Source: Paracoccaceae bacterium (lineage in GTDB: Bacteria > Pseudomonadota > Alphaproteobacteria > Rhodobacterales > Rhodobacteraceae). From it: a DNA stretch of 64,000 nt. A model generated the notes under the pieces. It was given only the letters and a program-made list of their open reading frames with translations. It ran no database searches and was not told the origin of the DNA. Where the stretch lies: positions 1 to 64,000 of the forward strand of contig JAFIEF010000005.1 of assembly GCA_020832655.1 (NCBI GenBank), in the 5' to 3' direction. Made by a program: the position numbers and the translations under genes. Every line of letters starts with the position of its first letter. Within the stretch, counting starts at the first letter, position 1. This document shows, in pieces, positions 17,305-46,901 of the stretch.

Positions 17305-18181
17305 CGGGGTGGATATCCGGCAGGGGGATTTCACCCTGCGCGCCGATCTGCGCATCGCTGATGGCGCGCGGGTGGCAATCATTGGCCCATCGGGCGGGGG
17401 GAAATCGACGCTGATGGGCGCGATTGCGGGCTTCGTGGCGCTGGCCTGGGGGCGGATCTGCTGGCAGGGGCGCGACATCACCGCGCTTGGCCCCTCGGCG
17501 CGCCCGGTTTCGGTGCTGTTTCAGGACAACAACCTGTTTCCGCATCTGTCGGTCCTCGACAATGTCGCGCTGGGGCTTGGCCCTTCGCTGCGGCTGAAGC
17601 CCGCACAGCGCGGGCAGGTCAGCGCGGCGCTGGCACGGGTCGGGCTGGAGGGGCTGGAAACCCGCAAGCCCGCGCAATTATCCGGCGGGCAGCAAAGCCG
17701 CGTCGCGCTGGCGCGGGTGCTGTTGCAGGGGCGCGCGCTGCTGCTGCTGGACGAACCCTTCTCGGCCCTTGGCCCGGCGCTGAAATCCGAGATGCTGGCG
17801 TTGGTGGCCGAGATCTGCACCGAAACCCGCGCCACGCTTTTGATGGTCACGCATGATGTGGGGGACGCGCGCGCGATTGCGCCGCAAACCGTGCTGGTGG
17901 CAGAGGGCCGCGCCGAAGGGCCATTCGCAACCGCCGGGTTACTGACCAGCCCCCCGCCCGCGCTGCGCGCTATTGGGGCGTCACACCCACCCGGGTTTAT
18001 GCACACCCGGCCCGCCCCCCGCCGCGGGGGGGGGGGCAAGGGCGGGCGGGTGGGCACGCGCCCGCGCGGGGGGCGGCCCCGAAGGCCGCGCAATCCTGAC
18101 CGCCTCAGGCGCTTTGCACCACCTTGGCGGCGTCGCGCGCCAGCTCCTCGCGCGTGGCGTTGCGCCGATACCAGATCGTGA
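17291..18181 (+). CDS. thiQ: Thiamine ABC transporter ATPase ThiQ, with an abnormal C-terminal extension
   Basis: An ABC ATPase with Walker A GPSGGGKST, signature LSGGQQSR and Walker B ALLLLDEPFSAL, overlapping thiP by 14 bases. The normal ThiQ body of about 230 residues ends near PPPALRAIG. Here the frame stays open for roughly 65 further residues rich in Arg, Gly and Pro, encoded by a GC-rich repeat. It then overlaps the antisense end of the BASS transporter gene by 77 bases. I think the original stop was lost when the repeat arrived. The ATPase core itself looks complete. Confidence 0.85.
   Translation: MLTLDGVDIRQGDFTLRADLRIADGARVAIIGPSGGGKSTLMGAIAGFVALAWGRICWQGRDITALGPSARPVSVLFQDNNLFPHLSVLDNVALGLGPSLRLKPAQRGQVSAALARVGLEGLETRKPAQLSGGQQSRVALARVLLQGRALLLLDEPFSALGPALKSEMLALVAEICTETRATLLMVTHDVGDARAIAPQTVLVAEGRAEGPFATAGLLTSPPPALRAIGASHPPGFMHTRPAPRRGGGGKGGRVGTRPRGGRPRRPRNPDRLRRFAPPWRRRAPAPRAWRCADTRS
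17980..18105. repeat. GC-rich palindromic element at the thiQ 3' end
   Basis: Includes CACACCCACCCGGGTTTATGCACACCCGG, a run of eleven G residues, GGGCGGGTGGGCACG (shared with the lnt element) and GGCCCCGAAGGCCGCG. It separates the conserved thiQ body from the convergent BASS transporter gene. Boundaries are approximate. Confidence 0.5.
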
Positions 18182-41408: not shown

Positions 41409-41586
41409 GCCCTATTAGGCATTGCACCCCGCCTTGCCAAGCGCCACGCCGTCATCCATGCCGTTCGAAGGAGTTGTCATGCCCTATCGCGCCCCGCTTC
41501 AGGATTTTCGCTTTCTGCTGGATCATGTCATAGGTTTTGATCAGGTCAGCGGAACCGGGATGTTTGCCGAGGCCACGGCAGAGACA

Positions 41587-41755
41587 ACCCAGGCCATCCT
41601 GACCGAAGCCGCGCGGCTATGCGAGGATGTGATGGCGCCCTTGCAGCGCAATGGTGATCTGCACCCGGCACGGCTGGAGAACGGCGACGTGGGCCCCACC
41701 CCCGGGTTTTGCCCTGGCGTCCGCCCCCATGAGGAAGGGGGCGGGCGGGGCCGTT
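41587..41755 (+). repeat. Tandem duplication unit, copy 1
   Basis: Aligns with 41763..41931 at an offset of 176 bases, with one 1-base insertion (GGG versus GG before TTTTGCC) and one 1-base deletion compensating each other. Its first half encodes family-like sequence (EDVMAPLQRNGDLHPARLENG); its second half is degraded and ends in the TGA. About 77% identity overall. Confidence 0.85.
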
Positions 41756-41762
41756 GACCGGA

Positions 41763-41931
41763 TACCACGCCATCGTGACCCAAGCGGCGGGTCTATGTGT
41801 GGATGTTATGGCGCCCTTGCAGCTCATTGGGGATCTCCACCGGCCACGGCTGTTGAACGGCGAGGTGCGCACCTCGCCCGGTTTTGCCGATGCCTTCCGC
41901 GCCATTGCCGAAGGCGGCTGGCTGGGCATTT
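41763..41931 (+). repeat. Tandem duplication unit, copy 2
   Basis: Its second half encodes the family-like sequence (VRTSPGFADAFRAIAEGGWLGI); its first half is degraded relative to copy 1. By hand count the copies differ at 38 positions, of which 37 are transversions. Confidence 0.85.
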
Positions 41932-43357
41932 CCGCTGATCCCACGCATGGCGGCATGGGGCTGCCGCAGACCCTGGCAGTGGCGGTCAATGACATGATGT
42001 CCTCTGCCTGTCTGGCTTTGCAGCTTTGCCCGCTGATGGCGCAAGGCCAGGTGGAGGCACTGGAACACCACGCCGATGATACGATCAAGGCGCTTTACCT
42101 GCCCAAGCTGATTTCCGGCGAATGGACCGGCACCATGAACCTGACCGAACCGCAGGCAGGCAGCGATGTCGGTGCGCTGCGGACCAAGGCAGAGCCGCTG
42201 GAGGATGGCAGTTACGCGATTACGGGCCAGAAGATCTATATCAGCTGGGGCGATCATGACATGACTGAAAATATCTGCCATCTGGTGCTGGCCCGCCTGC
42301 CCGATGCGCCAGAGGGCACGCGCGGCATCAGCCTGTTCATGGTGCCGAAATTTCTGCCCGATGAGAACGGCAATCCCGGCGCGCCGAACAGCCTGCGCGT
42401 GGTTTCACTGGAACACAAGATGGGGCTGCATGGCTCGCCCACTGCGGTGATGGAATATGACCGCGCCACAGGCTGGATGGTGGGGGCACCCAACAAGGGC
42501 ATGGCGGCGATGTTCACCATGATGAACAATGCCCGCGTCGGTGTCGGCGTGCAGGGCATCGGCGTGGCCGAAGGCGCCTATCAGCATGCGCTGGCCTATG
42601 CGCGAGAGCGCAGGCAGGGACGCACGCCGCTTAGCAGTGCGGGCGCGATCATCGAACATACCGATGTGCGCCGGATGCTGGCGATGATGAAGGCCGAAGT
42701 GTTTGCCATTCGCGCCATTGCGCTGGCCAACAGCGTGGCGATCGACATGGCGCGCGCCACCGGGGCCGAGGACTGGGCCGCGCGCGCGGCCCTGCTGACG
42801 CCGATCACCAAGGCGCATGGCACTGATATCGGCATCGAGGTCGCCAGCGCCGGCATTCAGGTGCATGGCGGCATGGGCTTCATCGAGGAAACGGGCGCCG
42901 CGCAATATCTGCGCGATGTGCGTGTCACGGCGATCTATGAAGGCACCAACGGCATTCAGGCGATGGATCTGGTGGGCCGCAAGATGATGGATGGCGGCGA
43001 GGCCGCGTTCCGCCTGCTGCAGGAAATCGAGGACGGGGCCGAGGCCGCCCGCGCCACCCTGCCCGATCTGGCCGAAGCGGTCTGGCAGGCCGCCGAATCG
43101 CTGCGCGAGGCCACGGAATGGCTGGTCGGGCAGGATATGACCAGCCGCAGCGCGGGGGCGGTGGCCTATCTGCGCGCCTTTGCCCGTGTTCTGGGGGGGC
43201 ATTACCATCTGAAAGCCGCGCTGCATGGCGATGGCGCGCGCAAGGCGCTGGCGCAAATCTTCATCACCCGCATCCTGCCCGAACATGGCGCGCTTCTGGC
43301 TCAGACCCGCGCGGGGGCTGACGCGCTCTATGCGCTGTCTGACGACGATCTGGCCGC

Positions 43358-44404
43358 ATGATGGATGGATCGGATACAAACGCAGCGCTGCGCTACCCGT
43401 TCCCCGACCCGCCCGCCGAAGGGCAGGTGCAACGCGTGGCCGAAGGCGTGTTCTGGGCACGCCTGCCGCTGCCGATGGCGCTGGATCATGTGAATGTCTA
43501 CATCCTTGATGATGGCGATGGCTGGACGGTCTTTGACACGGGCTTCGCCACCGGGCGCAGCCGCGCGATCTGGGCCACACTGCTGGACGGGCCGCTGGCG
43601 GGCAAGCCCGTCACCACTGTCATTGCCAGCCACCACCACCCCGACCATATCGGGCTGGCGGGCTGGTTTCAGGACCAGGGCGCAAGCCTGTGGACCAGCC
43701 GCACAGCCTGGCTGTTTGCGCGCATGCTGACACTGGACGCGCAGGACCGCCCCTTGCCCGAAACGCTGGAATTCTGGCGCCGCGCGGGGATGGACCCGGC
43801 GATATTGCGACAGCGTGCCAATGAACGCCCCTTCAATTTCTGCGATGTGGTGGCCCCCATGCCGCTGGGCTTCACCCGGCTGTCCGAAGGCCAGACCCTG
43901 CGCATGGGCGGGCGCGACTGGGTTGTGCGGCTTGGGCAGGGGCATGCCCCCGATCAGGTAACGCTGTGGTCGCAAAGCTGCAATCTGGTGCTGGGCGCAG
44001 ATCAGCTGCTGCCCGGCATCTCGCCCAATCTCGGCGTCTATGCCACCGAACCAGAGGCTGACCCGGTCGCAGAATGGCTGGAAAGCTGCGCGCGGCTGCA
44101 AGGCTTTGCGCGCGCCGACCATCTGGTCCTGCCGGGGCACAAGCTGCCCTTCACCGGGCTGCCCTTCCGGCTGAAACAGAAGATCGACAATCATCACGGC
44201 GCGCTGGAACAGCTGCACCAGCATCTGGCCAGCCCGCGCCGCGCGGGCGAATGCTTTGCGCCGCTCTTCAAGCGCCAGATAACCGATGGCACCTATGGGC
44301 TGGCGCTGGTCGAGGCGGTGGCGCATCTCAACCATCTTTGCGCAACCGGGCAGGCCCGGCGCTGGCAAGGCGAGGATGGCATCTATCTGTGGCAGGCGCT
44401 GTAA
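43358..44404 (+). CDS. Metallo-beta-lactamase-fold hydrolase
   Basis: A 348-residue MBL-fold enzyme with the metal motif ASHHHPDHIGLAG (HxHxDH-like) near residue 90, further ligands in VRLGQGHAPDQ and GADQLLPG, and LPGHKLPF late in the protein. A C-terminal helical part resembles the winged-helix tail of glyoxalase II/LACTB2-type hydrolases. It overlaps the acyl-CoA dehydrogenase stop by four bases, so it was probably in the same operon and may act on thioesters. The substrate is unknown. Confidence 0.87.
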   Translation: MMDGSDTNAALRYPFPDPPAEGQVQRVAEGVFWARLPLPMALDHVNVYILDDGDGWTVFDTGFATGRSRAIWATLLDGPLAGKPVTTVIASHHHPDHIGLAGWFQDQGASLWTSRTAWLFARMLTLDAQDRPLPETLEFWRRAGMDPAILRQRANERPFNFCDVVAPMPLGFTRLSEGQTLRMGGRDWVVRLGQGHAPDQVTLWSQSCNLVLGADQLLPGISPNLGVYATEPEADPVAEWLESCARLQGFARADHLVLPGHKLPFTGLPFRLKQKIDNHHGALEQLHQHLASPRRAGECFAPLFKRQITDGTYGLALVEAVAHLNHLCATGQARRWQGEDGIYLWQAL

Positions 44405-45877: not shown

Positions 45878-46399
45878 ATGAGCATTCGTCCGATCCTGAT
45901 CCATCCTGACCCACGGCTGAAAAAGCTGTGCCCGCCCGTGGCCGAAATCACGCCCGAAATCGGCAGGCTGGCCGAGGATATGCTGGAAACCATGTATGAT
46001 GCCCCCGGCGTCGGGCTGGCCGCGCCGCAAGTGGGGGTGCTGGCGCGGCTGTTCGTGATGGATTGCGTGAAGGAAGAAGGCGAAAGCCCCCGCCCGATGG
46101 TGCTGATCAACCCCGAAATCATCACCACCTCGGAAGACACCAACACCTATGAGGAAGGCTGCCTGTCGATCCCCGAACACTATGGCGAAGTCACCCGCCC
46201 CAGGCGCGTGACCATGCGCTGGCTGGGGCTGGACGGCAAGACGCATGAGCAAGAGTTTGACGGGCTTTGGGCGACCTGCGCCCAGCATGAGCTGGACCAT
46301 CTGAACGGCAAGCTGTTCATCGACCATCTGGGCGCGATCAAGCGCAGCATGATCACCCGCAAGATGGTCAAGCTGAAGCGCGAACGCGCGCGCGGGTAG
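45878..46399 (+). CDS. def: Peptide deformylase
   Basis: A 173-residue Fe/Zn hydrolase removing the N-formyl group from new proteins. Motif 1 GVGLAAPQVG, motif 2 EEGCLSIPE and motif 3 QHELDHLNGKLFIDHL are all complete. The start is ATG 45878 (MSIRPILIHPDPRL), not the track start at 45722. It heads a def-def2-fmt cluster that couples formylation and deformylation. Confidence 0.96.
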   Translation: MSIRPILIHPDPRLKKLCPPVAEITPEIGRLAEDMLETMYDAPGVGLAAPQVGVLARLFVMDCVKEEGESPRPMVLINPEIITTSEDTNTYEEGCLSIPEHYGEVTRPRRVTMRWLGLDGKTHEQEFDGLWATCAQHELDHLNGKLFIDHLGAIKRSMITRKMVKLKRERARG

Positions 46400-46403
46400 C
46401 GCC

Positions 46404-46901
46404 TTGGCCATCCGCCGCTGCATCCCCTGGCCCGACAAGCGCCTGCGCCAGCGCGCCGCCCCGGTGGACGCCATCAGCGATGAGATCCGCGCGATCTGGG
46501 CCGATATGATCGACACGATGGAAGCCATGCCCGGTGTCGGCCTTGCCGCGCCGCAGATCGGGGTGATGCTGCAACTGGCGGTGGTGGATGCGTCCGAGGG
46601 GCGCGGGCAGGTGGTGCGCATGGCCAACCCCGAAATCCTGCATGCCAGCGGTCAGATGCGCGCCCATGACGAGGCCAGCCCCAACCTGCCCGGTATCTGG
46701 GCGCGGATCGAGCGCCCTCGGGCCGTGACGGTGCGATTTCTGAGTGACGCGGGCGCGATGCAAGAGCGCGATTTCGTGGGGCTATGGGCGACCTCGGTGC
46801 AGCATCAGATCGACCATTTGCAGGGGCGGATGTATTTTGACCATCTGTCAAGAATGAAACGCGACATGCTTTTGCGGCGCGCGCGAAAGGCGGCGTCGTG
46901 A
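46404..46901 (+). CDS. Degenerate peptide deformylase paralogue
   Basis: A 165-residue PDF-fold protein beginning with TTG four bases after the true def stop. Motif 1, GVGLAAPQIG, is kept. Motif 2, where EGCLS is expected, reads EASPNLPGI and lacks the metal-binding Cys. Motif 3 reads QHQIDHL, so the catalytic Glu of HExDH is Gln. It is therefore unlikely to be a normal deformylase. It could bind nascent peptides or ribosomes, or regulate Def, but this is inference. Confidence 0.88.
   Translation: MAIRRCIPWPDKRLRQRAAPVDAISDEIRAIWADMIDTMEAMPGVGLAAPQIGVMLQLAVVDASEGRGQVVRMANPEILHASGQMRAHDEASPNLPGIWARIERPRAVTVRFLSDAGAMQERDFVGLWATSVQHQIDHLQGRMYFDHLSRMKRDMLLRRARKAAS

What the first reader, a model, noticed from the sequence alone, without database searches (positions are those of the whole stretch)
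41587..41931. Tandem duplication with almost only transversions between copies
Aligning 41587..41755 with 41763..41931 by hand gives 38 base differences, of which 37 are transversions and only 1 (a TGC/TGT pair) is a transition, plus two compensating one-base indels. Ordinary mutation in bacteria favours transitions, and even random change gives only about two thirds transversions. In addition the changes fall in the second half of copy 1 and the first half of copy 2, so a chimera of copy 1 then copy 2 rebuilds the normal family sequence. I know of no standard process that explains this pattern. It could be an unusual mutational process, or an artefact of assembly or polishing.
Basis: partly seen in the sequence, partly recalled or inferred. 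Interest (0 to 1): 0.75.

Follow-up and report, generated by a model that had tools for sequence, protein, structure and literature searches.

The report
Assembly artefact from bad read ends
The odd duplicated stretch is very probably not in the bacterium's DNA: it is a 176-base false insertion that an assembler made from the error-filled ends of short sequencing reads, and the two-colour detection of the sequencer explains why nearly all the errors are transversions.

Summary
In detail: 37 transversions, 1 transition and a compensating indel separate two copies 176 bp apart, inside an acyl-CoA dehydrogenase gene. The cause is very probably technical. Relatives carry one copy, and without 176 bp at point X (41687/41688; exact base uncertain within 41679-41688) the frame runs on to 568 aa, exactly as in six relatives. 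The inserted 176 bp is two noisy arms leaving X in opposite directions (28 errors in 84 bp, 19 in 92 bp). Code each base by two light channels (A both, C red, T green, G dark). Then 46 of 47 errors flip one channel, and single-channel flips are by definition transversions. The flipped channel matches the preceding base, in the direction away from X, at 38/48 flips (chance 24.9, p<0.0002), and shows nothing for the following base. That is phasing lag in sequencing by synthesis. Where the preceding base is the transition partner, all 15 errors are a mixed colour, neither base. True divergence in the same gene shows 39-44% transitions and no neighbour effect. The same assembly has poly-G/poly-C decay at several contig ends and one further internal site. 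Best reading: low-quality two-colour read tails filling a false gap. Raw reads were not available.

The parts
41479..41687 (+). True 5' part of the acyl-CoA dehydrogenase gene (ATG at 41479), clean sequence up to point X
   Evidence: Matches relatives; with 41864-43361 it reads as one 568-aa frame, the length found in L031, L032, L036, L003, L005 and L038
41688..41771 (+). Arm 1 of the false insertion: error-rich copy of 41864-41947, read left to right away from X
   Evidence: 28 mismatches in 84 bp, 0 transitions; flipped channel equals that of the preceding base 24/28 (chance 14.5), following base 12/28 (chance 13.1)
41763..41771 (.). Chance overlap (TACCACGCC region) where the two noisy arms were joined
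   Evidence: Both arms align into this stretch in the printed alignments; joining by overlap is inference
41763..41854 (-). Arm 2 of the false insertion: error-rich copy of 41587-41678, read right to left away from X
   Evidence: 19 mismatches in 92 bp, 1 transition; flipped channel equals that of the preceding base (minus-strand direction) 14/20 (chance 10.4, p=0.05), following base 9/20 (chance 8.9)
41855..41863 (+). Last bases of the 176-bp insertion, identical to 41679-41687, so the exact position of X is uncertain by about 10 bp
   Evidence: alignment
41864..43361 (+). True remainder of the acyl-CoA dehydrogenase gene
   Evidence: Pfam PF02771, PF02770, PF00441, PF12806; matches relatives

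Best explanation
The 176-bp insertion at X is an assembly artefact. Two contigs that really abut at X were placed with a false gap between them. The gap was filled from each side with the low-quality 3' tails of short reads running away from X, and the two tails were joined at a short chance overlap. The tails come from a two-channel Illumina instrument (NextSeq, MiniSeq or NovaSeq type), where A is both channels, C red, T green and G dark. One wrong channel always gives a transversion; a transition needs both channels wrong. Lagging molecules (phasing) leak the previous base's light into each call, which flips one channel towards that base. Shown here: the single-channel spectrum, the dependence on the preceding base with mirrored direction, single copy in relatives, and other read-decay junk in the assembly. 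Inferred: the instrument class and the gap-filling step.
For: Relatives have one contiguous copy. Removing the 176 bp restores a 568-aa frame equal in length to six relatives. Sharp switch at X: 18/19 and 18/18 differences polarise to opposite copies. 46 of 47 mismatches are single-channel, P = 1.3e-7 against random. Flipped channel matches the preceding base 38/48 (chance 24.9, p<0.0002), the base two back 38/48 (chance 27.0), three back 33/48 (chance 27.0); following bases show nothing; the direction is mirrored on the two arms. At positions whose preceding base is the transition partner, 15/15 errors are neither the true nor the preceding base. A simple simulation of two-channel calling with lag gives 5-11% transitions, four-colour with no cross-talk about 30%, four-colour with laser cross-talk 7-18%. 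Natural differences in the same gene: 39-44% transitions, no neighbour effect. Poly-G/poly-C decay at the ends of C3, C40, C70, C90 and C100 and inside C20 at 41487-41565, the last being about 100 bp longer than in relatives; 20 homopolymer runs of 9 or more in 705 kb here against 1 in 438 kb of relatives' loci. Published: channel code and terminal poly-G (PMC6291791); bias towards the preceding base (PMC8002175); phasing raises errors at read ends (PMC10415152).
Against: No raw reads, quality values or assembly method were available. PMC8002175 looked for C>A after T and T>A after C across platforms and did not see an excess, although that survey concerns average errors, not collapsed read tails. 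The effect is weak on arm 2 taken alone (p=0.05), where the green channel shows none (3/7). No other noisy tandem duplication like this one appeared in about 640 kb of other stretches; the other junk sites are homopolymer decays.
Confidence: 0.95

Rival explanations
1. A real tandem duplication that then mutated by an unusual transversion-only process.
For: The transversion excess is real.
Against: The process would have to mutate only the inserted 176 bp, switch copy exactly at X, copy the colour-channel state of the preceding base in opposite directions on the two sides, and spare the rest of the gene. No relative has the duplication.
Confidence: 0.02
2. Same artefact, but the tails come from a four-colour Illumina instrument (A/C and G/T laser cross-talk) or another platform.
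For: A<->C and G<->T errors dominate on HiSeq (PMC3334598; PMC4719071); simulated cross-talk also lowers transitions, to 7-18%.
Against: C<->G and A<->T make up 21 of 37 transversions between the copies, which laser sharing does not predict. 15/15 mixed-colour errors after a transition partner, and poly-G at read ends, point to dark-G two-channel chemistry.
Confidence: 0.1
3. The noisy copies are true homologous sequence from another strain or species joined in by misassembly.
For: Identity of about 80% resembles that of relatives.
Against: Relatives differ with 39-44% transitions; the arms show 1 in 47, and the noisy bases at conserved sites are mostly seen in none of 21 relatives.
Confidence: 0.01

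Closest known systems
Phasing and read-end error accumulation in Illumina sequencing by synthesis (PMC10415152, PMC6053417, PMC3334598)
   Same: Errors dense in a read's 3' part, biased towards the preceding base, almost all substitutions
   Different: Here the tails were built into a deposited assembly, so they look like genomic sequence
Two-channel chemistry artefacts: dark G and terminal poly-G (PMC6291791)
   Same: Contig ends here carry poly-G (poly-C on the other strand); single-channel errors give transversions
   Different: The red/green mixing error that PMC8002175 expected but did not find on average is seen here in the arms
False gap closure and false duplication at contig joins in draft assemblies
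   Same: Sequence on both sides of a join is repeated, with low-quality ends facing each other
   Different: The copies are so noisy that the overlap was not recognised and merged; the software used is unknown

Membership tests
Assembly artefact from low-quality read tails at a false gap | Insertion absent from relatives; removing it restores the normal gene | tested here: met
Assembly artefact from low-quality read tails at a false gap | Errors confined to two arms facing each other, with clean sequence outside | tested here: met
Assembly artefact from low-quality read tails at a false gap | Raw reads do not support the insertion | not testable with these tools
   No reads available
Assembly artefact from low-quality read tails at a false gap | Other read-tail junk in the same assembly | tested here: met
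   Poly-G/poly-C decay at contig ends and inside C20
Sequencing-by-synthesis phasing error | Errors follow the preceding base in read direction, not the following base, decaying with distance | tested here: met
   offset -1 38/48 vs 24.9; -2 38/48 vs 27.0; -3 33/48 vs 27.0; +1 21/48 vs 22.0. Strong on arm 1, borderline on arm 2
Two-channel Illumina chemistry | Single-channel errors (transversions) dominate; mixed-colour calls when true and preceding base differ in both channels | tested here: met
   46/47 single-channel; 15/15 mixed-colour
Two-channel Illumina chemistry | Instrument recorded as two-channel | not testable with these tools
Natural tandem duplication with biased mutation | Substitutions resemble divergence elsewhere in the gene or in relatives | tested here: not met
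   39-44% transitions and no neighbour effect in natural divergence

The most novel reading that the evidence does not exclude
A real 176-bp tandem duplication whose inserted half was rewritten by a transversion-only process that depends on the neighbouring base.
Probability: 0.02. Interest if true: 0.85.

Novelty: not a real feature. Interest (0 to 1): 0.1.

Why it matters
It removes a false lead about mutation and shows a usable fingerprint: in a draft assembly, a noisy duplication with transversions only, whose errors follow the preceding base away from a point, marks built-in two-colour read tails. Here it shifts the frame of an ordinary acyl-CoA dehydrogenase gene, which automatic annotation would probably report as a split or broken gene.

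Tried and rejected
Tandem Repeats Finder does not report the array. Called base identical to the preceding base as a simple test was significant only on arm 1; the channel-by-channel test was more telling. Reading the arms towards X instead of away gives no preceding-base effect. One script failed on file names. Literature searches for a described gap-closing artefact of exactly this kind found general warnings only, and those papers were not read in full.

Full report
OBSERVATION. 41587-41755 and 41763-41931 differ by 37 transversions, one transition and a compensating pair of one-base indels. The chance of at least 37 transversions in 38 with random change is 4e-6. The window is the start of contig C113 (106 kb) of a 3.24-Mb draft in 121 contigs; the closest matches of the gene are Roseinatronobacter-like Rhodobacteraceae. 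The site lies in the N-terminal part of an acyl-CoA dehydrogenase gene.

WHAT IT IS, ANATOMICALLY. In the relatives compared, the sequence left of 41687 and right of 41864 is contiguous and single-copy. Placing the differences against 21 relatives, 18 of 19 on the left are changes in copy 2 and 18 of 18 on the right are changes in copy 1, with a sharp switch between 41678 and 41688. So this is not two diverged copies but one insertion of 176 bp at a point X (drawn at 41687/41688). Leaving it out gives one frame of 568 aa, the same length as in six relatives checked; with it the frame shifts and stops at 41755-41757. The insertion consists of an error-rich copy of the sequence right of X (arm 1, 41688 to about 41771, 28 errors in 84 bp) running into an error-rich copy of the sequence left of X (arm 2, 41763-41854, 19 errors in 92 bp). 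The 7-bp 'spacer' is part of arm 1.

WHY ONLY TRANSVERSIONS. In two-channel Illumina chemistry, C is red, T is green, A is both and G is neither (PMC6291791). A wrong call in one channel gives A<->C, A<->T, C<->G or G<->T, which are the transversions; a transition needs both channels wrong. In the two arms 46 of 47 mismatches are single-channel. In a simple simulation, two-channel calling with lag and noise at 15-40% error gives 5-11% transitions; four-colour calling with no cross-talk gives about 30%, and with laser cross-talk 7-18%. With 1 in 47 observed, the spectrum alone does not separate two-channel from four-colour with cross-talk; the next tests do.

WHY THESE BASES. Molecules that lag one cycle add the previous base's light. 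The flipped channel should then take the state of the preceding base in the read direction. It does: 38 of 48 flips against 24.9 expected when errors are re-dealt among positions with the same true base (p<0.0002); 38/48 against 27.0 two bases back; 33/48 against 27.0 three back; no effect for following bases. 'Preceding' is taken away from X on both arms, so the direction is mirrored on the two sides, as expected for read 3' tails entering a gap from both sides. The effect is strong on arm 1 and borderline on arm 2 (p=0.05). Where the preceding base is the transition partner of the true base (both channels differ), all 15 errors are a mixed call that is neither base. The survey PMC8002175 predicted exactly such errors from phasing on two-colour machines but did not see an excess in average data; collapsed tails may be a more extreme case, which is my inference.

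CONTROLS. Natural differences between the clean part of this gene and six relatives are 39-44% transitions and show no neighbour effect. Elsewhere in the same assembly, contig ends decay into poly-G or, at contig starts, poly-C: starts of C3 and C70, ends of C40, C90 and C100. One such block lies inside a gene at C20:41487-41565 (L137 1487-1565), where the genome is about 100 bp longer than its relatives. (My notebook gives a wrong contig position for this block; the one here is right.) In 705 kb of this assembly there are 20 homopolymer runs of 9 or more, against one in 438 kb of relatives' loci. No second noisy tandem duplication was found in about 640 kb of other stretches.

CONCLUSION. The duplication is best explained as low-quality two-channel Illumina read tails built into a false gap. 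The error model is well supported from the sequence itself; the instrument and the gap-filling step are inferred, and raw reads would decide. It should be discounted as biology.

Noticed in passing
L137 1487-1565 (own genome C20:41487-41565): Block of long G and C runs inside a gene, about 100 bp longer than relatives; looks like a second false gap fill.
   Followed up: partly
L123 1-70 (C70 start), L131 1-47 (C3 start), L141 16550-16660 (C90 end), L120 10690-10720 (C40 end), L127 3636-3686 (C100 end): Contig ends decay into poly-G/poly-C (C100 into poly-A), typical of untrimmed read tails; genes near contig ends of this assembly should be treated with care.
   Followed up: partly
window 18007-18079: Very GC-rich intergenic stretch with an 11-G run and several inverted repeats; either a natural hairpin or terminator, or more read-tail noise.
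   Followed up: partly
window 46196-46833: Weak direct repeat at a distance of 517 bp (79/120 identical, 10 transitions, 31 transversions).
   Followed up: no
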